Of a DNA stretch of 64,000 nt, positions 6,221-32,997 are shown one piece after another. The notes beneath the pieces were generated by a model, which was given only the letters and a program-made list of their open reading frames with translations, made no database searches and was not told the DNA's origin. The DNA comes from Taiwanofungus camphoratus (Eukaryota > Basidiomycota > Agaricomycetes > Polyporales > Taiwanofungaceae): positions 3,906,001-3,970,000 of the forward strand of contig CP021220.1 in assembly GCA_003999685.1 (NCBI GenBank), in the 5' to 3' direction. Every line of letters begins with the position of its first letter. The stretch's first letter is position 1. The position numbers were made by a program, and so were the translations under genes.

Positions 6221-8158
6221 TTAATCCAGCTCGTCGAGCAAGGAGCGCGAGGTGATAGAGTCCCACGCCTGCTTGATCGCAGGAACAGCGTTGGCAGCGT
6301 CGGTGACGATGTGGACGCCCGTGTCAATGTCGTTGAGAGACACAGATGCATCGCTGGCGGCTTGACGCGCCATCAACTCGGCAATGTCATCAAACTCGCT
6401 GGAGCGGAAATGTTAATCCATGGATCGTGATGTAAGGCATCACATCTTACCGCTTGGATGATTGCTGCTGGTTGTTGCCGGAGTTTGTGAAGCTCTCGAC
6501 GGCATTCTTGCCGGCCTCGAATGCATTCCAGCCGTCCGCGGCAATCCCACCGATGTTCTTGATGGTACTCCAAGAGATAGCATCGCTGCCATCCTGACGC
6601 GCCATCATCCTCACAAGGTCATCAAACTCACTGCAAGAAAGTCAGTCTCCAAGGAGGCCAGAGGGTGATACCAAGACTCACCGCTTGGACTGCTGGTTCT
6701 GAACAGTGTTGACCGCGTTTGCACCAGCAGAGACGGCACTGGCACCGTCACTGAAGATGTTGAAGATCTTCCCAAGACTGCTCCATGAGAAGGCCTGGCT
6801 GCCGTCATCTTGACGCGCCATCAGCTCAAGTAGATCATCGAATTCGCTAGAAAATAAAATCAGTGCGGCAGACATATTTGAAGACACAACAACCTACCGC
6901 CTGTTGTTGTTGTTGGTGACAGCCTGATAAACGTTTGCACCAGCATTAGCAGCTTCTGCACCATCCTTAACGTAGCCGATGATCTTTCCGAGAGATCCTA
7001 ACGAGAATGCCTGGCTGCCATCTTGCCGAGCCATGAGTTCGACCAAATCATCGAGCTCACTAGGGAAGAGTGCGTTCAAAACTGACTAAAATTGTGTAGG
7101 GAGGTCACAACTTACCGCCTATTGTTGTTGTTCGTGACAGCCTGGTAAACGTTTGCACCGGCATCCGCTGCTTCTGCACCGTCTTTGACGTAGCCGATGA
7201 TCTTTCCGAGGGATCCCAACGAGAACGCCTGGCTGCCATCTTGTCGGGCCATGAGCTCGACGAGATCGTCAAGTTCCCTGAAGGAGAAACATTCAGAATC
7301 AAGTCAGGCCTTGTAAGGCAGGCGCTACACACCGTCTGTTGTTGTTAGTGACAGCCTGGTATACATTGGCACCAGCATTAGCAGCATCGGCACCATCCTT
7401 GATGTAGCCAAAGATCTTGCCCAGAGAACCCAAAGAGAAGGCCTCGCTGCCATCTTGACGAGCCGCGTGGGCCTTCGAGTGCTTACTGGCACCATGCGTA
7501 CGATGGTGCGACTTGGGCTCCCTGGCCATCAGCTCCATCAAGTCGTCGAGCTCACTGAATGAAACATAAGCAACACAAAGTACTATGTACTGTGAGATTA
7601 CCTACCGCTTTGAGGACTGCTGGTTGTTAGAGTTGGTGAGACTCTCGACCGCGTTCTTGCCAGCTTCGAATGCATTCCAGCCATCTGAGGCAATACCACC
7701 GATGTTTTTGATTGTGCTCCATGAAATGGCATCGCTGCTGTCTTGACGAGCCTTGTGGCCCTTGGTGTGCTTCGTGCCATGGTGGCCATGGGACTTGGGC
7801 TCTCTGGCAAGGAGCTCCTCAAGCTCACTATCCCATACATGAGAACAGAACAAGCCCGAGGCTCATGCATTAACGTACCGCGCATGGGCTTTAGAGTGGC
7901 CCTTGGAATGCTTGCCGGTATGAGCACGGTGCTTGGGCTCTCGTGCGAGCAGTTCCTCCACATCGCTGAACAATGTAATCAGAAAGTTGACTGGGTGACA
8001 TGCAAGAGACGACGTACCGGCTAGTGATCGAGTTCCATGCCTGTTTGATCGCAGGAACGGCGTTCGCGACGTCCGTCACGAAACCAACACCCTTGTCAAC
8101 GTCGCTCAATGAGACACTGGCAGCGCTGCCGCTCTGGGGGGTTGGAAGCGCGCTAGAT
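6221..8158 (-). repeat. Array of symmetric phase-2 module exons (A-H-B-C-C-C-D-B-A)
   Basis: Nine successive exons are related coding repeats of 87-222 nt. Exon 2 and exon 10 share VTDVANAVPAIKQAW or VTDAANAVPAIKQAW. Exons 4 and 9 share DAISWSTIKNIGGIA. Exons 5, 6 and 7 share SLGSLGKI and AGANVYQAVTNNN. Exon 8 is a divergent C-like form. Exon 3 holds only the His-rich segment. Exons 6 and 7 are both 162 nt and differ by only one residue (AADAG versus AANAG), so they are the most recent duplication. Confidence 0.85.
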
Positions 8159-8264
8159 CTACGCGTAAGCTATGACGAATGTAGACAAATAAATGTACTC
8201 ACCCTACGAAAGAGGGGGTAGCGGCAGCAACGGCAGCAACAGCGATAACAGTGGAAGTGCGCAT
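6221..8264 (-). CDS. Modular secreted multi-peptide precursor (putative Kex2-processed repeat protein)
   Basis: Not a family I can name. Ten exons (8264-8203, 8158-8018, 7965-7879, 7827-7606, 7554-7333, 7277-7116, 7059-6898, 6846-6682, 6630-6451, 6398-6221) join to 526 residues with no cysteine. Exon 1 encodes a signal-peptide-like Ala/Val-rich start, MRTSTVIAVAAVAAA. Each later exon encodes one module, and all nine introns are phase 2, splitting an Arg codon (except the first, in Gly). Exons 4-9 end in KR or RR. The next exon opens with an acidic stretch such as EFDDLVELMAR and then QDGSQAFS. Module cores come in four types: A (exons 2, 10), B (4, 9), C (5-7) and D (8). Exons 3-5 also carry His/Lys-rich segments. 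A TATA-like TTATTTAA sits about 120 bp upstream. By analogy with Ustilago Rep1, dibasic cleavage in the Golgi is inferred; function is unknown. Confidence 0.8.
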
Positions 8265-9307
8265 GTTGATCGTTAGATTGGTATTAAAATGGAGATCGTA
8301 ATGAAGCGAGATTAATTAACGAGAGTAGTCGTGACGAAAAAAGCGAATATGAACGAAACAAGTCAAGCTGGGTGATGCAGGCATTAAATAAGTGGGGATG
8401 TGATAGGGGATTCGGGATTTATTGACTCACTAGCCAGTACCTGAACTTGAAGAAGATTGGCCCGAACAAATCGACTGAGGAGCTGGGGAGACAAAGTCGA
8501 AAAGTCGGCGTATTTTATACCATGTACAGTAGTGGGGCGGTGCCGACACCGATCATCACACTGCTCAGCCTCGCTGTCTGTGTAAAACTTGCAACAAATG
8601 ATCGTAAGCATGGAGATACGTTCGAGCGCCAAGTGATAGGCGTACCGCACTGGCGTCACTGTGAGTGCATCACCTGGGTCATGTCATTTTGTTTCTGCGA
8701 TTCAGCAAGCACTGATGCATAATGTCAGCCTATAGTCGTGCCGTCAGTCTTCCCTGTTGCAATCTTCAAATGATCAGTCTGGTCGTGAAGATCAAAGCAG
8801 GAAAACGATTTACCGTATTGGCGGGCTCTAGAGGTTCTGCACACTTTTCCGAGACTCTAAGCGCTTAAAGATAGCTCGGTTGATCCTGAGACCGCAATTG
8901 TGTTTCAGCAAGTCATAAATCAAGTTGCGAATGTTTTTTTCACGATGCGATCACCTATCTTGTTAGATTGATGCTGCTCAAACGAGCTCGGCATTCGAAA
9001 GTGAACAGATGTCACTCGTGATCTTTGTCATGGTCTCAAGAGTGTGCACATGCAGAGAGCAAGTATCCATGTCAATTGCGCTTCAAGTGTTAGGGGCGAT
9101 ACATGATCATACATCCCGCATCCCGCATCATGATTGGGAAAAGGCTGGAACTGGGACGTTATACGCGAGACTGATATAAGGCGATTCTTACAGTATGGTG
9201 TCCTCAGTGTACGCTGCGCGTAACACCCACTGCTGTTTCCAGCTACTTTCTTTCGTCACTTCACTTATTTCACGAATTCTTTAACGTCAATTGTAACTGC
9301 AGTAATC
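8265..9307. promoter_or_regulatory. Divergent promoter region between the modular precursor and the GPI-tailed protein gene
   Basis: No gene is seen in these 1,043 bp. A TTAAATAA at 8384-8391 reads as a TATA-like TTATTTAA for the minus-strand precursor, about 120 bp from its ATG. GATATAAG at 9173-9180 is a TATA-like box about 130 bp before the plus-strand ATG. A short tandem of CATCCCG units lies near 9113-9126. Shared control of the two genes is possible but not shown. Confidence 0.45.
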
Positions 9308-23451: not shown

Positions 23452-25262
23452 TGACCCTTTATGGACAGTTTCTATTTGATAACGGAAATCCGTGCTTCAT
23501 CCAAGCATCAGCATCTTTCCGATTGTTTCGTCTGTTTGTTGCTCTATGTATCATTATAAGTAACTGCAACCCTCTATCATGCTGTCATCAATCTTTGATC
23601 TTGTGCCTCTATAACAACTGTCTGGGCTGTTTCTCGATGCCTTCGTTATGTACATACAGGCCTGTTGCAATTACGTTACATTCATATCGATGGACCCATG
23701 CGTGGAAGACCCGTGCACAGGCTGAGCTTCGGCGTGGGCATCGGGGCACCTCATTTGGTAGGCTGTCTTGAATGTTGTTGGCAGAACCCTGGCATTGGAT
23801 AAGCCCATTTCTGCCAACCCGGCCATTGCCTGGCAGTTAGAAATTTAGCAGAAACCCGACAGATATCCCGATTGCAAACTAGCTGTGCTGGACATCTTTT
23901 TTGAGTTATGATTAGTGATTGGACGTAGGTACCCTCGAGTTCCTCATACAGCACCATATTTAGGAGAGTCATTTTGGAGGGTCCTACGGCCCGACTGATA
24001 GTCTTTTACTAGTACAACCCTCCGGTCGGCGGCAGTGCGTCAAGTGCCGCTGCCTAAATTTCCAATCAAGGACGTTCAGATCGGCCCACGCACGAATTTT
24101 CGCTAGAACCAGCCGTTCGGAGCTGAATTTCTGCACGACGAAACACTCCTGAACATCTGGTGGCTTTGCCCCCGTGGTCCTGAGCATAGTGAAACAGTCA
24201 CGTGCCTAGCTTTCCCTTCTTATGGATGCTACACATCACGATGGCACTTTGGGCTCACTGTTTGAAAATGAGGACTCTGATAATGACGAAAGCCAGCGCC
24301 AGTAGCACGGACACAGCGCTCAACAAATGTAGAAGTTAGTGGGTGTTCTGCAGCGTGAGTGTCACGCATGTCACCGACCCAGGTGTCACGGGGGCAAAGC
24401 CACCAGACGTTCAGGAGCGTTTCGTCGTGCAGAAATTCAGCTCCGAACGACTGGTTCCGAGACTAGAATTTTCGCGTGCACAGACACTGTCAGACAGTAA
24501 AGTAGGTCTCCCGATATGAATTTAGCACTGCGTATCGGTGATCCGCTAGTGCTGTCATTGTACAGGTCGGTCACTGCGCACTACAATGCTGCGTAGCACA
24601 GACCTCGGTCTTATCACGAGTGACGCGGCATCTCGCCGACGTATGTTTGGTGCTAGCCGCTTCCTCGACGGCACCGATTGCCATCAACAAAAGTTAAGTG
24701 CATTTACCGATATATGTGAGTACTCTTTCAGTCGTCTTGCTGCCATATGTATACACGATATCCTCTTGCTCGGCAGAAACTGACAGCGCCTGCTAGCAAT
24801 CGTGTCACCGAGTCCCATGCATGCCATATTGGCTGCAAGAGGAAAATTCGGACACATTTGTCTATTGAATGAAACGCGCAATAGCTGAGTTACCTGAATC
24901 GACGACTGTGCATGGGGTCGTGTGATATCCTGCAATAACACGAATCAAGATTGCATCATACACCTCGTCACACGAGGCTAATGCATGCTGATAAAGCTGT
25001 AGAGACATATTCCAAAGTTGAATGTGGGTAGGTATGTAAGGCTCATCTAGTGATGCTGAAGTCGCCACTTCGAAATATTTTCTGGTAGTGCCTATACCCA
25101 GGCGATCAAGAAGCACCGCCCCTGTCCACAGATCTCATCATAGCGTCAAGTCTACTGCGTGTACAAGGTATTCGTATATAACAACCGCAGTGCTTATGGA
25201 CGCAGTGCAATATCCCCTGTCATATTTATCATTCGCTGCTTGCTATCAGCTGACATCTCCAA
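23452..25262. other. Long intergenic region with an inverted repeat
   Basis: No gene is seen in 1.8 kb. It contains a 350-bp inverted repeat (24107-24456), listed separately. The remaining frames are short and unrecognised. Confidence 0.55.
24107..24456. repeat. Inverted repeat: two 70-bp arms around a 210-bp spacer
   Basis: Arm 24107-24176 is the reverse complement of arm 24387-24456, with 67 of 70 positions matching by eye and no gap. The three differences are transitions, two of them at CpG. The spacer has no open frame of note. Outside the arms the two flanks share weaker, gapped similarity for about 20 bp. It could be a relic of a non-autonomous DNA transposon or a local inverted duplication. 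No target-site duplication was identified. Confidence 0.7.
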
Positions 25263-27032
25263 ATGTTTGAGGGCTTCAGATGGCTTCAATCTCAGAAGAG
25301 GCAGCCTGAGCCAGCTTATGAGCTTCTCCTGGATCCTAACTCTCGTTCGCAGCCTACCCTCCATCGATTTCCTTGGTTCACGAAAGGATGTGTCAAATTA
25401 TCAATGGCATTTGTCATTCCAATAGTGGTGGTCTCTATTTTTCTATTAGCGCATTTCAGGGCGAGACACTTTGTGACCGAAACAGGGTTGGTGTCGCTGA
25501 GACCACCCTCTCCTCTCCCCCCATTATATTCTGCTTGGCATGAATACGAACTTCGACTACCACAACACAATATGGACCTGCCGTTTCCAGAAGGGAGGGA
25601 CGGAAAGTATTTTAGAATAGCCAACTATGCACATTGTATGTCACGGTGTTTCCTGTATCTCTAACTATCAATGTATCTCTAACTATTAATTCTGCCATCA
25701 GCGTCTGGTTGGGGTAATGTGATGCAAAATCTGCTTCTAAATGCCTATCTGGCCTACAGTACTGGCCGATCGTAAGTGATGACAGATTTTCTTGAATTCT
25801 GCCAATGATATGTATCATCTTAGTTTCGTCTTCTATAATTATACCTGGAATACTGACGGGTCTAACTATTCAAATTACAACGGGAAACTCATCCCCTCGA
25901 AGGTCCCTCTTTCCACCTTGTTAGGAGGTAGAGCAACTCGTACTCCAGTAGCAGGAGTGACTAATCTTTATCTGTAGGACCAATTGTTGGGGAGCCCTTC
26001 CCTGCTGGGATCCAGGTTCCACGTGCCGTGGCGAAGGAGTATTGGGATGAGGTTTGCCCTAGTCCGAAGGTGGTCAGGAATGACGATATTCTAGCATCAT
26101 TGGGGAGAGAGTCTACTGCTGGTAATATGATTGACAAGTGGAACGAAGTCCTCAATTCGACAGAGGATCGGTGCGTTGAGGTTGCGGGTGATTCATACAC
26201 AATCTTTGACATTTTGTAAGTATATCCATCCTTCAACATCTTCAGATCCTGACACCTAGAAGCATATTTGGAGATCCCAGAAGGTTGCTGGATGCCTGGC
26301 CCAGATTCTCAACATCTCCCATTCTGACTCACTTTGCCTTGTCCCCGCTCGTAGAGCTCGCGTTCGACACCAACCGAGACCTTATCTCCCCACCGGCTGT
26401 TTTCGAACCCTACGTCTCTTCAATGTCTTCCACATTGAGCGCTGAACGTTATGCGCCCATTCCCGGTTTACTGGCGCTGCACATCAGAAGGGCGATTTCG
26501 AGCAGCATTGTAAGAACTTGGCGGACTGGCAAGCCGGCTATGTCGGCTTTAACTCGTTCCCAGAGCTTCCGGACAAATTCTCGCTTCCTCCAGACATTCC
26601 TTCGGAGAGAAGACGAAATTTATATCGCCCTCGCTGCTACCTTAACATCTGGGAGATTGTGAACAGAGCCTCCTATATGCGCCAGACGGAGGCTGGGCAA
26701 GGATTACAGAACGTATATATCATGACGAATGCGCCAACCTCATGGGTGGACAAGCTGAAGGCCGCACTCCTTAGGACCAATTATTGGGATAATGTTGCGA
26801 GTAGCAGAGATCTTCTGGTAAATCTGGAGCAGAAGTATGTCAAGCAAGCAGTGGATATGCTCATCGGACAAAGGGCACAGGTATTTGTCGGGAACGGGGT
26901 ACGTGCCTTTGATGCCTCACAAGCATTGCGGGATCTGACATGTCCACAATCAAGTTCTCAAGTCTATCAGGACTCGTTACAATGCTGCGCATGGCCAATG
27001 GTATTGATCCTAACGCTAATCGAGTTTTATAG
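25263..27032 (+). pseudogene. Glycosyltransferase-like type II membrane protein, copy 1 (frameshifted)
   Basis: First of three tandem paralogues; see copy 2 for the family. The N-terminal cytoplasmic stretch, a membrane segment (LSMAFVIPIVVVSIFLLAHF), the YELRLPQHN motif, ASGWGNVMQNLLLNAYLAY-like segment, FVFYNYTWN, ALHIRRGDF region, VYIMTNAP, QKYVKQAVDMLIGQRAQVF and the end TMLRMANGIDPN are all present. In the HIRRGDF motif, at about 26488-26493, one G is missing relative to copies 2 and 3, so the frame shifts from HIRRG to an unrelated reading. Downstream exons remain intact in the other frame, so the lesion is young or is a sequencing error. All other splice sites are conserved. If real, the catalytic part is lost. 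Confidence 0.65.
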
Positions 27033-28207
27033 AGAATCGGATACATCAATTGAACTGACTGCTGTAGCTGTAGTGTATCGGGTCCCATGATGATTAGTCC
27101 GTTGCATGAACAGCTACCAGTCGCTGCTGAGCTGATCTAACTGTTGGCACGCGTTGAATAGCTCGTGGGCGTGCCAACCCCCTTTAACACGTCAACCCTG
27201 CTGTCCTTCGAAATCCTCTATCCCCTCTTTTCATAATGACTTCAATGACTTCAACGGAGTCTTGGCTACACTGAGCATGACTATCCGACATACCCAACCC
27301 CTTGTCGAACGACAATGTCGACCCAGTTTGCGACTCGAGAGCTGTGCAGTAATACTGATGCAGCATTGTCCTTGTGGAATCATTCTAATGCCTCAAGCAA
27401 ACAGCGTGCATCCGGTCGCTAAAGTCCATCATCTCGAAAGCCTGCAGACTGCGGATCTTCTCCGCGAAAAGTCCATGTGCTCGTGAGCGTGAACATTGGT
27501 GCATCCGACGCGGCCCTTGGGCTGTGCTCTTGCTGCTTGCCCGTGCTTATCGGCGGTCGACTCTGGACATTGTATCTCTCCATATGGTAAGTCTTATAGT
27601 TCCCATCTTAGGTAAACTGCCAGAACGGACGAGGTAACTTATAGCACGTCCGTATCGTGAGTCTGTTCAGAAGTGGCAAGTACTACTGATAATCGTGGTC
27701 AGCTTCAATGGCAGTCTATTGAACCAGAATGCAACTGTATCACGCAATGCATGCTTATCGGGCTTAAAGTTATACTTTGGGGCTGCGGCAGACTGCGCCT
27801 TGCTGACAGCGCTCCCAGTCCATCGCTCATGAGGCAGAGAGCGCCGATAGCGACACAGGCGTTTGTTGACTGCAGTAAGTCTTATGGCATCACAAGACCA
27901 ATCCAGTGGTAAAGTGACAGGTATGCCGAGTTCAATTAGTAAACTACCAACTCAAACGGGACATTCACTTCCACAGCAACGTTGTTCGGTTCGATGCCAG
28001 ATCTCAAGAGCACCGGCTTGCCCAAAGAGCGTGACAGAATCCATATACAGAAGTCAGCTATTAATTGGAGATTTATGTACGTCGTGATGGTCAAGACGCC
28101 CAGTCCACATCACATACGGCCATGTATAAAGCTCCACCCATCACGCGTGCCGTGCGTACTTTCGCCTCGAACAATTGCTTGCTAAGTGAGTCATCAAGAT
28201 ACAGAAA
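27033..28207. other. Spacer between glycosyltransferase-like copies 1 and 2
   Basis: No convincing gene. Short frames here do not resemble the flanking family, and I recognise no repeat. Confidence 0.5.
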
Positions 28208-30080
28208 ATGTTTTCTCGGTGGCCACAGAACAAATCTGCAAGGGATTATAATGGATTGCCTAGTATTCACATTAGCCCTAATCCACAGCAAAATGCAAAT
28301 CGAATATCGTTCCTCACAAAACGATACACGAGATTTGCCGTAGTAGCATTCATCTCGTTAGCTACTCTGTGTCTGTTACTCAGATCCTCTGCGACCCCAG
28401 AGGTGATACCAGAGTTGACGTCTGAAACAGCTACTGCATCGCATTATGAGCTGCCATCCTCTTCACTTGCGCCGACAGGGCCGCCATCTTCTCCCCCACC
28501 TCCGCCATCACCCTCACCTCCACCACCACCCTCACCTCCACCATCACCCTCACCTCCCTCAACGCCCCCGCCACCGTTATATGGGGCGTATCAACAATAC
28601 GAGCTTCGTTTACCACAGCACAGCTTGACCCTGCCGTCTTCAGACGGGCTCGATCGTACCTTTTTTCGGATAGCAAACACTGTTCATGGTAAGTGGGCAC
28701 CATACACGACAGTTGACTGTGTTCTGACTTCCTCGATAGGGGCAGGCTGGGGAAACTTTTTGCAAGATCTCCTACTCAATTCTTACCTGACCTACGCCGC
28801 CGGTCGATCGTACGCGTCTGTTTCAGGAATCAGCACTCCCTGCCCTCACCAGTATTCTGTTATAGATTTGTCTTTTATAATTACACCTGGAATGATGACG
28901 GTTCCGATTATACAGACTATAACGGGAAGCCCATTCCTTCGCGAATACCGCTTTCCGCCTTGATACGAGGTAGCACCATCAAAAGTCTCCTGAATATCCT
29001 GTCTTGATTTGTTTGCCAAAGGACCGACGGTAGGAGCGCCATTCGCTACCGAGACCCACATCCCGCGTGCCATCAAGCTGGAATTCTGGGAGAAAGCCTG
29101 TCCTGATCCCAGACTAGTTAGCAACGACGACATTCTGCGTTCGTTGGGCCATGAGTCAACAGCCGGAACGCTGGTCGAGAAGTGGGTAGAAGTACTCAAA
29201 AGCACAGAAGAAAGTTGCGTAGAAATGCCGCGCAGTGGATGGACGATATTCGATCTCTGGTAGGTCAAGTCTGCCGTGATACTTTCGTCGGCCTGACACT
29301 GGTAAGGATTATGGGGGACGGAGAGCGGCTGCTCGATGTCTGGCCTGGATTCTCAAAGTCGCCGATCATCACCGAATTCGGGTGGTCCCCGCTCGTCGAG
29401 CTCGCGTTCGATATGAACCGCGAGCTGATTTCCCCGTCGGCGGTATTCGAGCCGTTCCTCGCGCAGAACCCGTCCCCATTCAACGCGGAGCGCTACACGC
29501 CCATCCCTGGCCTGCTCGTCCTGCACATCCGCCGTGGCGACTTTGCGGAGCACTGCCAGAACCTCAGACGGTGGGGATCGAACTTTGAGGGCTTCAACTC
29601 GTTCGCGGCGCTCCCAGACAAGCTGGGTGTCCCCGCGGACGCGACAGAGGAGGCGCGCACCCGGCTGTACAGCTTGCACTGCTACCCCGAGATCGACGAG
29701 ATCGTAGAGAGAGTCGAGAACGTGTGCGCGACGGACGCTGGACGCGGCCTCAAGAACGTATATATCATGACAAATGGCCCGGTGCCATTCGTCAACGAGC
29801 TCAAGGCGGCCCTGTGGCGGACTCACCATTGGAACAGCATCGTGAGCAGCAGAGACATTATTTTGAATCACGAGCAGAAGTACGTCAAGCAAGCTGTGGA
29901 CATGCTTATTGGGCAGCGGGCGCAGGTGCTCATCGGGAATGGAGTGCGTGTCTTCGGCCTGTTTACCGGCCTCATAGCACTGTCTGACCTGACGTGTCCT
30001 AGTTCTCGACGTTGACTGGGATCATCGTCATGTTGCGCATGGCCAATGGGATCGATCCCAATGCTACTAGGTTATGGTGA
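28208..30080 (+). CDS. Glycosyltransferase-like type II membrane protein, copy 2
   Basis: Basidiomycete family of unknown substrate. The pattern HIRRGDF with GFNSFAALPD and IMTNG resembles the GDP-fucose O-fucosyltransferase fold, where an HxR motif binds nucleotide sugar; this is an inference. Layout: a short cytosolic N-terminus, a membrane anchor (VVAFISLATLCLLL), and a stem made of Pro/Ser repeats (about residues 90-125). The luminal domain then has YELRLPQHS, GAGWGNFLQDLLLNSYLTYA, FVFYNYTWND, FDLW, VFGDGERLLDVWPGF, LHIRRGDFAEHC, QKYVKQAVDMLIGQRAQVLI and the end MLRMANGIDPNATRLW. About six exons; splice sites align with copies 1 and 3. The frame is intact. The last large exon is clearly more GC-rich than the rest. 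Confidence 0.75.
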
Positions 30081-31194
30081 TACATCAGTTTCCTTCGATG
30101 TTTTTTCTGCGGGTTCATTAGCAAGGTTTCGGGTGTGGCAAAAAGCATCCCAAGTATGTATTTCGAAGGTGGGCTCGATCTTTCTGAAATTAACTTGCTG
30201 GCAGCGGTACAATTCCGAAAACGCAATGAAGTGGTCCCTTTTGAACACGCGGAGACGTCGACCTGAGGCAGTATCAGGAGAAATAAACCCATTATCGCCT
30301 TGGGCACTCCACCACCTTGTGCTATATATCTTGCCCATCGCCCTTTCGGTTTCTTGAGCCTCGATCTATCCATGCTACAATGCTTACACGACAAGGTGGC
30401 ATCTGGGATCGATGAAGGCCTTCGCATTCAGTCACCAGAAAAGTAGATGGAGCAATCTGATGCTTATGGGTCAAGCGATGTGCTGCTATGGAGCGTGTCG
30501 AATACCCTTTTAGATTGCTTGTTTCCTGGTGGCATCAGAAGGCTTTCATCGATTTCAAGTGCATATTTGTTCGTTTGACCAGGATCTTGGCGCTATGAGA
30601 CTCATCAGCTGGATCCGCAAACATGCCATGTCCTAAGTCCACGACAACTGGAGTATCTTCGATGCAACTGAAGGCTTAAAGTCTCGCTCTACTTATCCGC
30701 TATTCAAAATTCTCAGCATCGCACAAGAGAACCCAAGTTGGGAAGTTATGAGGATAGAATTTCTGACCCTAGCAGCTGAAAGAATCATGTAAACTCGATC
30801 CTGAGAATGGATCAATGCCGTTCATGAGGTCAATTGCAATCATCAACACAAAGATTAAGATTTCCAGCTTTTCCTTCAAAATCGTTTGAATACAGGCCGG
30901 CACTGGACAGAATAGAAGCGGTTCTGCAGCTGGCCAGAGGCATTTGATCATGTGAAGGCAGTCGCGGCAGACGACGCGGTCGTCAGCTTCCCGCTCCACT
31001 TTGCCACGCGAGAAATAGGTGCCAAGCGCAGCAATGATCGACTACGCGCTCACAACATTCAAGTTACGTCTTTTGAGTCTGCATTCTAGTGCAGTGGCAT
31101 GCCAGCAGTGCATGTTTTTCCACCTTTCACTGGATCAGCACTTTCTGTAGCCCTTGCTCTCTCTTTCTATCTTTGAGAACAGCGTCGTACTGGA
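30081..31194. other. Spacer between glycosyltransferase-like copies 2 and 3
   Basis: Short unrecognised frames only. No repeat shared with the other spacer was noticed. Confidence 0.5.
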
Positions 31195-32997
31195 ATGCCT
31201 ATCGAGTATGTCAAGCTGGTCGCTAACATGTCTGCACGCACGCACCGGAAACCTCTCGAACACAATGGCACCATCCTTCCCATGACCTCTGAGCGACATT
31301 GCAACGGTACCCGGCCATGGTGGTCGAGGTGGTATACAAGACGTCACTCGCGCATCGCACTGCTCGCCGTGTTAGCGTTAGCGTTCATAGCTTTGTTTCG
31401 CAGTCTAGATGGACTGGCGCTCCTGGAGGAAGTCGCCCCCATCATTGAGGATCTTGCGGAGAACCACATATTTCCCCCGTTATATGGGCAATATCATGAG
31501 CAAGAAATGCTTTTACCGCAACACAATCCCGACCTGCCTTACCCCGAAGGGCGAGAGGGAAAGTACATATGGTTTCCCAACCATGTTCATGGTGCGTCAT
31601 GTCACACTCCTCTTGGAAACGCTTGGATCAATAACTACTCGTTCCTAACAGCATCCGGATGGGGTAACGCTATGCAAGAGCTACTTCTCAATTCGTACTT
31701 GGCTTATGGTTCTGGGCGAGCGTATGTGGACGGAGCATATCACACGACGCTGTTCGCTGATAGAATGCTACATTCAGTTTTGTGTTCGACAACTACACAT
31801 GGAACAGAGATGGTTCAGATTATACTGACTACAATGGGAAACTTATCCCTTCGCGAATACCGTATACTGTTCAGATGAGAGGTAACTGATAGACATATCA
31901 CCATCTTCGCAATCACTAACAGTGATTTTAGGACCTTCTGTTGGCGACCCATTTCCTCCAGGCGACCCAGCCCCACGTTCTGTCATAAAAGAATACTGGG
32001 ATCAAGTATGCCCATCGCCCACGATCATAAGTAGCGACGAAGTCACATACAGCATAGACAAGGATGCGTCAGCGCTGACACTATTTAACAATTGGGTGGA
32101 AAAGCTAAACTCGGTGGACGACCGGTGCATTGAGATCGACAAAAATTCTGGGCAAATCTTCTCCATATGGTATGTTGTGTGGCCGTCTTGTTTCGAATTG
32201 CGTGGCATGACCAGGCATTAGGGTTTTTGGCACTAATCGAATACTGGACATCTGGCCGACATTCTCTAAATCGCCCATCCTGAACGAATTCCGGTGGTCA
32301 CCACTGATCGAGAACGCTTTCAACACGAACCGCCCAATATTCTCGCCCGCATCCAGACTGGACTCCTACATCCCCTCCTTCCCCTTCTTCAGCAACGACG
32401 ACCCGTACGCTCCGCTCCCTGGGCTGCTTGTGTTGCACATCCGGCGTGGCGACTTCGCGGACCACTGCATGCACCTCGCGAAGTGGTCGTCCGGCTGGAA
32501 TGGATTCAACTCGTTCCCCGAGCTGCCGGACAAGTTTGAGGTGCCGCTCGGCGGCGGGTGGGGCGAGACGACGCGGGAGAACATGGAGCTGTACATGCAG
32601 CACTGCTTCCCCAGCATCGAGCAGATCGTCGCGAAGACGGAGGCAGTGCGCCAGACGCGCGCGGGTCGCGGGCTCAAGAACGTGTATATTATGACCAATG
32701 GCGCGAAGTCGTGGGTGGATGACCTCAAGGCTGCGCTGATGAGCACGGGGCACTGGAAGAAGGTCACGGGCAGCAGGGACGTGAAACTAAACTGGGAGCA
32801 GAAGTACGTCGCACAAGCGGTGGACATGCTGATCGGCCAGAGGGCACAGGTGCTCATTGGCAACGGAGTAAGTGGATTGGGTCCTTGCACTCAGGATGTT
32901 TGCTCATCTAGCCTTGCAGTTTTCTAGCCTGACGTCGAACATTGTTATGCTGCGTATGGCAAGGAATATACCCCCAGACAGCAACCGCTTCTGGTGA
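31195..32997 (+). CDS. Glycosyltransferase-like type II membrane protein, copy 3
   Basis: Third tandem paralogue, intact. Membrane anchor IALLAVLALAFIALF is followed by a short stem without the Pro repeats of copy 2. Conserved motifs follow in the same order: LYGQYHEQEMLLPQHNPDLP, ASGWGNAMQELLLNSYLAYG, FVFDNYTWNRDG, LHIRRGDFADHC, GFNSFPELPDKF, NVYIMTNGAKSWVDDLK, QKYVAQAVDMLIGQRAQVLI, NG joined to FSSLTSNIVMLRMARN, and a C-terminal NRFW before the stop at 32995-32997. Six exons are inferred from GT-AG sites that align with copy 2. The start may be at 31195 or at the Met at 31228; both precede the anchor. As in copy 2, the final coding stretch is GC-rich. Confidence 0.75.

What the first reader, a model, noticed from the sequence alone, without database searches (positions are those of the whole stretch)
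6221..8264. Ten-exon modular precursor: one peptide module per exon, in mirror order
Seen directly: exons join without a frame break to a 526-residue, cysteine-free protein with a signal peptide-like start. Eight helix-like modules of four types run A-B-C-C-C-D-B-A. Exons 4-9 end at a dibasic KR/RR exactly at the splice site, followed by an acidic EFDDLVELMAR-type spacer. Known: fungal Kex2-processed repeat proteins (for example Ustilago Rep1) release several secreted peptides. Inferred: this gene encodes a cocktail of related but non-identical Ala/Gly-rich peptides, unlike most such proteins, which repeat one peptide. I know no named family with this layout.
Basis: partly seen in the sequence, partly recalled or inferred. 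Interest (0 to 1): 0.85.

Follow-up and report, generated by a model that had tools for sequence, protein, structure and literature searches.

The report
Exon-by-exon fungal secreted-peptide precursor gene
This fungal gene appears to encode one long secreted protein that is cut into about a dozen small peptides of several kinds, with each main peptide carried on its own exon; the general strategy is known in fungi, but I found no earlier description of this exon layout in the papers I could search.

Summary
Minus-strand exons at 8264..6221 join in one frame into a 526-residue, cysteine-free protein. All nine coding introns are phase 2; eight split an Arg codon as CG|N, so any exon-to-exon join keeps that Arg. 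Exons 4-9 (6 of 6) end in KR/RR at the splice site. Same-type modules differ mostly at silent sites (C2/C3 dN/dS 0.015), so the peptides are under strong purifying selection. The mirror order is weak: A and B alone mirror, as do 48 of 1680 arrangements. Best reading: a Kex2-processed repeat protein (KEP) releasing eight anionic, probably helical peptides of four types plus cationic His-rich peptides. Heterogeneous KEPs are known (Rep1, Ece1), so this is a variant. Secretion, cleavage and function are inferred; no fungal sequence collection was available to look for relatives elsewhere.

The parts
8513..8519 (-). TATA box (TATAAAA); a TATA-like box lies 32-34 nt upstream of a CAGCTCCTC block in all three genes
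8431..8485 (-). predicted 5'-UTR exon; 5' end approximate; conserved with the C3 paralog
   Evidence: K1/K2 local alignment score 75 against a shuffle maximum of 33 (300 shuffles); K1/K3 and K2/K3 score 29 each, below their shuffle maxima of 32 and 30
8368..8430 (-). predicted 5'-UTR intron GTGAGT...CAG, followed by CTTGACTTGTTT that the C3 paralog shares
8203..8264 (-). exon 1: start and signal-peptide-like segment; 62 nt, the same length as exon 1 of the C3 paralog
8018..8158 (-). exon 2: module A1 (core residues 34-68), ends TSR split CG|N
7879..7965 (-). exon 3: acidic spacer ...LLAR plus His-rich segment H3, ends HAR split CG|N
7606..7827 (-). exon 4: spacer LLAR, His-rich H4, module B1, ends KR at the splice site
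7333..7554 (-). exon 5: spacer LMAR, His-rich H5, module C1, ends RR
7116..7277 (-). exon 6: spacer LMAR, module C2, ends RR
6898..7059 (-). exon 7: spacer LMAR, module C3, ends RR
6682..6846 (-). exon 8: spacer LMAR, module D, ends KR
6451..6630 (-). exon 9: spacer MMAR, module B2, ends KR
6221..6398 (-). exon 10: spacer LMAR, module A2, acidic tail SLLDELD, stop

Best explanation
A Kex2-processed repeat protein (KEP) of a basidiomycete-like fungus (lineage judged from gene anatomy, not tested). Shown: a 526-aa cysteine-free frame made of symmetric phase-2 exons, most carrying [acidic LxxR-like spacer] - [His-rich segment in exons 3-5] - [34-47 aa core] - [Arg or KR/RR], with strong purifying selection on the cores. 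Inferred: after signal-peptide removal, Kex2 cuts after KR/RR and after the xAR spacers, Kex1 trims the basic ends, and the seven cores whose new N-terminus would be Gln become pyroglutamyl; the products are eight slightly anionic amphipathic peptides of four types, probably helical, plus three cationic His-rich peptides. Most likely role (inferred, about 0.3): surface-active or self-assembling peptides at the hyphal surface or in the extracellular matrix, as with Rep1 repellents. Exon duplication built and tunes the blend: because Arg is CGN and every join of internal exons falls after CG, duplication or skipping of an internal exon keeps both the reading frame and the cleavage Arg.
For: Gene model, phases, CG|N junctions. 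dN/dS: C2/C3 0.015, C1/C2 0.058, C1/C3 0.074, A1/A2 0.135; B1/B2 5 nonsynonymous differences over 112 sites with synonymous sites saturated. His-rich segments 0.23-0.29; A modules within K2 0.085 (4 of its 5), K3 cores 0.059 (7 of its 8); A modules K1 against K2 0.30. Paralog on C3 and likely member on C4 with introns all phase 2, 5 of 5 and 7 of 7. Of 25 Arg after residue 21, six are the second residue of KR/RR, and 12 have L, I, V, M, A or P at P4. LxxR is an extended Kex2 motif (PMC8528282, passages); apparent cleavage after single Arg and N-terminal pyroglutamate were reported for Coprinopsis KEPs (PMC9769878). One Kex2 P-domain match in the genome. Helical models.
Against: No RNA or peptide data. 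Ala at P2 is not among the five best non-Lys P2 residues named for Kex2, and Met is not among the P4 residues named (PMC8528282); two sites before cores (HKAR, HAAR) lack an aliphatic P4. The C3 paralog has few dibasic sites, and its cores after xAR start with D, E or A, not Q. AlphaFold confidence is low. Amphipathicity per module is modest (shuffle p 0.016-0.098). The genome has hydrophobin matches (5), so these would not be its only surface-active molecules. The B modules resemble a frog antimicrobial peptide, which favours the first rival.
Confidence: 0.6

Rival explanations
1. Ece1-like: one or a few of the peptides are membrane-active or antimicrobial, and the rest are escorts. Candidates are the B peptides, or the cationic His-rich segments, which would be most charged at the low pH that wood-decay fungi create (recalled); the acidic spacers mask them before cleavage.
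For: Ece1 gives eight peptides, of which one 31-aa amphipathic helical peptide is the active one (PMC12153327, passages). B1/B2 share WSTIKN and more with frog dermaseptin: local score 52/49, reached by 0 and 1 of 5000 shuffles; Pfam dermaseptin E 0.046/0.071, below its cut-off. His-rich segments have net +3 to +4 and five His each, a spacer -4; they are kept in K1 and K2 with dN/dS 0.23-0.29.
Against: The dermaseptin likeness was met by chance in a word search and is limited to B: A1, A2, C2, D and one module each of K2 and K3 are no better than shuffles; no match in solved structures. Cores are net -1 to -3, unlike the cationic dermaseptins. His segments are less constrained than cores. No antibacterial activity was seen for the Coprinopsis KEP peptides tested (PMC9769878).
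Confidence: 0.25
2. An uncleaved modular structural or cell-wall protein: the exons are beads of helical repeats and the basic pairs are merely linkers, as in the repeat protein Cin1 of Venturia.
For: Regular one-module-per-exon layout; Cin1 is described as eight imperfect repeats of 52-64 aa with a helix-loop-helix core (PMC4617103, passage).
Against: Cin1 is cysteine-rich (PMC9632046, passage), and this protein has no Cys; the models of single modules are extended helices at low confidence rather than a packed domain, though packing of the whole protein was not tested; KR/RR lie in Asn/Gln/Ser-rich tails at 6 of 6 exon ends.
Confidence: 0.15
3. A RiPP (dikaritin-like) precursor whose cores are cyclised.
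For: KEP layout; the genome has at least 15 UstYa matches.
Against: None of the 15 lies on contig C1, where the gene is (such counts are lower bounds); cores are 34-47 aa with Tyr only in type C; none of 8 window frames scanned by Pfam gave UstYa.
Confidence: 0.03
4. A secreted signalling or pheromone-like peptide precursor.
For: The KEP layout is shared with alpha-pheromone precursors (PMC9769878, introduction).
Against: Cores are longer than the 9-24 aa alpha-pheromone class (PMC6339444); no XA/XP dipeptide ladder after the basic sites (sequence); four peptide types.
Confidence: 0.05

Closest known systems
Rep1 repellent precursor of Ustilago maydis
   Same: Secreted precursor with amphipathic imperfect repeats of 34-55 aa separated by Kex2 sites, giving 10 peptides of 35-53 aa plus one of 228 aa (PMC4617103, passage); core length here 34-47 aa.
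   Different: No sequence or gene-structure comparison with Rep1 was made. Here: four peptide types, acidic LxxR-like spacers, His-rich inserts, one module per exon.
Ece1 of Candida albicans
   Same: Polyprotein of eight peptides released at KR by Kex2 and trimmed by Kex1 (PMC12153327, passages).
   Different: Here the modules are recognisably related to each other and the helical peptides are net anionic; no sequence comparison with Ece1 was made.
Agaricomycete KEPs (Coprinopsis, Lentinula, Pleurotus)
   Same: Signal peptide, repeats, KR/RR sites; apparent cleavage after single Arg and pyroglutamate were observed (PMC9769878, introduction and two of three parts of the results read).
   Different: Detected peptides quoted in those parts are 6-20 residues long; exon structure is not discussed (0 hits for exon; 1 for intron, in methods).
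K2PP effectors (Kex2-processed pro-domains)
   Same: LxxR pro-domain cleavage motif (PMC8528282, passages).
   Different: One N-terminal pro-domain per protein; here a pro-domain-like spacer precedes most cores.
Cin1 of Venturia inaequalis
   Same: Secreted protein of 523 aa with eight imperfect repeats of 52-64 aa (PMC4617103, passage).
   Different: Cys-rich and Venturia-specific (PMC9632046, passage); no Cys here.
Dermaseptins (frog skin peptides)
   Same: B1 and B2 share WSTIKN plus a weaker C-terminal match.
   Different: Below Pfam's cut-off, B only, net charge of opposite sign; taken as probable convergence.

Membership tests
Kex2-processed repeat protein (KEP) | N-terminal secretion signal | tested here: inconclusive
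   Start reads as a signal peptide by eye and resembles the starts of K2 and K3; no predictor was available.
Kex2-processed repeat protein (KEP) | At least three repeats | tested here: met
   Eight modules, type C three times.
Kex2-processed repeat protein (KEP) | Kex2 sites flanking the repeats | tested here: met
   KR/RR at 6 of 6 ends of exons 4-9; the A modules end in a single Arg.
Kex2-processed repeat protein (KEP) | Peptides actually released | not testable with these tools
   Needs peptidomics.
Repellent (Rep1) | Kex2-released amphipathic peptides of about 35-53 aa | tested here: inconclusive
   Core length 34-47 aa; hydrophobic moment above shuffles at p 0.016-0.098; release unknown.
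Repellent (Rep1) | Amyloid-like surface fibrils | not testable with these tools
   Needs synthetic peptides.
Repellent (Rep1) | Sequence homology to Rep1 | not tested
   No Rep1 sequence was fetched.
Dikaritin RiPP | UstYa (DUF3328) gene near the precursor | tested here: not met
   15 matches reported in the genome, none on contig C1.
Dermaseptin (Pfam DD_K) | Match above the curated cut-off | tested here: not met
   B1 14.2 and B2 13.6 bits against a cut-off of 20.9.
Any Pfam family | Match above curated cut-off | tested here: not met
   12 families listed at E<=10 for the whole protein, none above cut-off; 2 of 5 other listings for single modules also below (Pax7 and TPR_CcmH_CycH for D). 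In K3 one, Vps39_1, exceeds its cut-off but with 0 significant stretches.

The most novel reading that the evidence does not exclude
A splice-tolerant, plug-and-play peptide gene: every internal coding exon is symmetric phase 2 and the junction codon is CG|N (always Arg), so skipping or duplicating an internal exon yields a legal precursor with its cleavage Arg; and retaining intron 4, 6, 7, 8 or 9 puts a stop codon immediately after that KR/RR. Alternative splicing and exon duplication could then set the composition and dose of the peptide blend without making a faulty peptide end.
Probability: 0.13. Interest if true: 0.75.

Novelty: new variant of a known kind. Interest (0 to 1): 0.5.

Why it matters
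Functions of most KEP peptides are unknown (PMC9769878, introduction). This gene and its relatives give a compact system: one genome with two homogeneous precursors and one heterogeneous precursor, unusually strong selection on each peptide type, and predicted peptide ends that mass spectrometry can test. It also shows how intron phase and codon degeneracy can make a peptide precursor evolvable by exon duplication. KEP searches that rely on dibasic sites, or on unspliced translation, could miss such genes.

Tried and rejected
Solved structures: whole protein, best E 0.36 and 0.64, taken as chance; B2 alone, nothing at E<=10. Pfam: nothing above cut-off for the precursor or for five single modules. 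Viral contigs: 33 and 27 pattern stretches, none confirmed. Bacterial/archaeal genome contigs, in the hope of fungal contaminants: 67 stretches, none confirmed. Sequence words in paper full text: one search found 912 papers (20 listed), mostly one string inside unrelated words; one listed paper (PMC10892537, WSTIKN) led to the dermaseptin likeness, followed. One search found 10 papers, all by one string inside an unrelated name; the other five strings had no occurrence. Papers on exon-per-repeat Kex2 precursors: searches gave 0; one search gave 1 (Glomeromycotina surface proteins, listing only). So 'undescribed' is limited to those searches of open-access text.

Species identification: no GH7 match (where the control rang nowhere either) and no 5.8S match (control rang in 9 of 14); species left open. 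Fold search was not run because both models are low confidence.

Rejected: mirror order as a strong signal. The A modules of K1 pair with each other (93/88), with the last K2 module next (83/83), so they are not position-by-position counterparts of the K2 ends (two of the eight K3 modules were left out of that tree as near-copies). The immediate stop on intron retention is largely what phase 2 plus a consensus donor gives (6 of 9, 5 of 5, 7 of 7), so it is no evidence of selection. Intron-intron similarity (z up to 4.1) may reflect shared splice signals and was not used.

Full report
Check of the observation. The gene lies on the minus strand. Nine GT-AG introns of 44-56 nt join ten coding exons (8264-8203 to 6398-6221) into 526 residues without cysteine. 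Lengths of exons 2-9 are all multiples of three and every coding intron is phase 2. At introns 2-9 the split codon is CG|N, which is Arg whatever base follows; at intron 1 it is GG|N. Exons 4-9 end with KR or RR, 6 of 6, the second Arg being the split codon.

Is it a real coding gene? Pairs of modules of the same type differ mainly at silent positions: C2/C3 13 synonymous and 1 nonsynonymous difference (dN/dS 0.015), C1/C2 0.058, C1/C3 0.074, A1/A2 0.135, B1/B2 22 differences over 29 synonymous sites against 5 over 112 nonsynonymous sites. This argues that the frame is translated and that each peptide type is individually constrained. D against B or C is more divergent (0.41 to 0.62 where the ratio can be computed).

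Anatomy. A typical unit reads: acidic spacer (ELDDLVELMAR type), then in exons 3-5 a His-rich stretch of 19-21 residues (EPK...AR), then a core of 34-47 residues, then Arg, KR or RR. Exon 2 has no spacer; exon 3 has spacer and His-rich stretch only. Net charge of cores is -1 to -3, of His stretches +3 to +4 with five His each, of a spacer -4. The spacers have Leu, or once Met, at P4 before Arg, like the extended Kex2 motif LxxR (PMC8528282, passages); their P2 Ala is not among the best-ranked P2 residues there, which counts against efficient cleavage. All 7 cores that follow an AR site begin with Gln; KEP peptides with N-terminal Gln were found as pyroglutamates in Coprinopsis (PMC9769878).

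Histories of spacer and core differ. Over exons 4-10 the spacer DNA similarity follows position along the gene (r 0.73, permutation p 0.0014), the core similarity does not (r 0.24, p 0.16), and the two are not correlated (r 0.13, p 0.26; seven exons only). So exons look like mosaics: spacers resemble their neighbours while cores are placed independently. The mirror order holds for A and B only; 48 of 1680 arrangements do as well, a post-hoc figure, so I do not build on it.

Family. Searching the window's own genome (33.19 Mb, 15 contigs, unnamed) with the spliced protein found a second gene on contig C3 and a weak match on C4 (E 0.0076). The C3 gene (K2, 336 aa, 6 coding exons) repeats type A five times with four His-rich stretches between; its exon 1 is 62 nt as in K1, all five introns are phase 2, four of them CG|N, and its C-terminus RFLDELD resembles RSLLDELD of K1. 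The C4 gene (K3, 395 aa, 8 coding exons) repeats a shorter core GSDAINWGS... with LLARQ spacers and NNNQNNRR-like ends; all seven introns are phase 2, but they lie just after the core, not in the Arg codon, and two exons hold two modules. Neither has cysteine. Further searches with K3, B/D and K2 pieces found no fourth gene (only best candidates are scored). K2 and K3 cores show low dN/dS (0.085 for 4 of 5, 0.059 for 7 of 8). A tree puts the K1 A modules with K2 (95/95) and K3 apart on a long branch; membership of K3 therefore rests mainly on shared layout and motif.

Promoter and 5'-UTR. K1 and K2 share a block of about 65 nt ending at a GTGAGT donor (score 75, shuffle maximum 33 in 300), followed after an AG by CTTGACTTGTTT in both. 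K3 has a similar order (TATA, 32 nt, CAGCTCC, GTAAGT), but its alignment scores of 29 do not exceed the shuffle maxima of 32 and 30. This predicts a 5'-UTR intron at 8430-8368 in K1 and a TATA box at 8519-8513.

Mechanism. Shown: frame, phases, sites, selection, paralogs, one Kex2 P-domain match. Inferred: secretion, cleavage at KR/RR and xAR, Kex1 trimming, pyroglutamate formation, helical peptides (mean pLDDT 63.6 and 62.1, helices 20-53 and 20-57). The function is a guess guided by Rep1, whose peptides of 35-53 aa form amyloid-like surface fibrils (PMC4617103, passages): length, lack of cysteine, Ala/Gly/Ser-rich amphipathic character and Asn/Gln-rich tails fit. The genome also has hydrophobins (5 matches).

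A hint towards membrane activity. The B modules share WSTIKN and a weaker C-terminal stretch with a frog dermaseptin (sequence as printed in PMC10892537, one table passage): local score 52 (B1) and 49 (B2), reached by 0 and 1 of 5000 shuffles; A1, A2, C2, D and one module each of K2 and K3 are no better than shuffles. Pfam's dermaseptin model gives E 0.046 and 0.071, below its cut-off. The likeness was met through a word search for six strings, so it is picked after the fact; I read it as probable convergence on an amphipathic helix, and it raises the antimicrobial rival somewhat.

Splicing consequence. Because internal exons are symmetric and CG|N always gives Arg, exon skipping or duplication preserves frame and cleavage Arg. 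Retention of introns 4, 6, 7, 8 and 9 gives a stop directly after KR/RR. This follows from phase 2 with consensus donors and needs no selection, but for this gene it means that truncated transcripts would still encode complete peptides. No transcript data were available.

Relation to the known. It meets the repeat and cleavage-site criteria of KEPs; secretion was judged by eye and release is untested. Heterogeneous KEPs are known (Rep1; Ece1, PMC12153327, passages; general statement in PMC7329392). What I did not find described is one module per exon with a split cleavage codon, in searches of open-access text only. Of 8 window frames scanned by Pfam, 3 had matches (sugar transporter, Dor1, NAGLU), none suggesting a peptide-modifying cluster. 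Main gap: no fungal protein or genome collection was available, so distribution in other species is unknown.

Noticed in passing
G000 contig C3:2560869-2562145 (L047:1869-3145): Unlinked paralog K2, 336 aa, 6 coding exons, five A-type modules with His-rich stretches; mostly single-Arg sites, so dibasic-based KEP screens may miss it.
   Followed up: yes
G000 contig C4:569136-570719 (L048:1636-3219): Likely third member K3, 395 aa, 8 coding exons, similar short cores; exons 5 and 6 are close two-module duplicates (273 of 292 nt identical).
   Followed up: yes
window 7965-7333: Three His/Lys-rich segments of 19-21 aa in exons 3-5, with counterparts in K2; possible separate cationic or metal-binding peptides.
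   Followed up: partly
window 7827-7606 and 6630-6451: The B modules carry WSTIKN and resemble frog dermaseptins; sub-threshold in Pfam, not shared by the other module types tested.
   Followed up: partly
window 25254-32927 (+): Several similar frames in a row with a near-shared motif (GLLVLHIRRGDF and variants), perhaps a tandem gene family; the one frame scanned (29155-30015) had no Pfam match at E<=1e-5.
   Followed up: no
G000 contigs C7 and C14: Groups of UstYa matches (C7:1555-1565 kb, C14:871-878 kb), possible dikaritin-type gene clusters.
   Followed up: no
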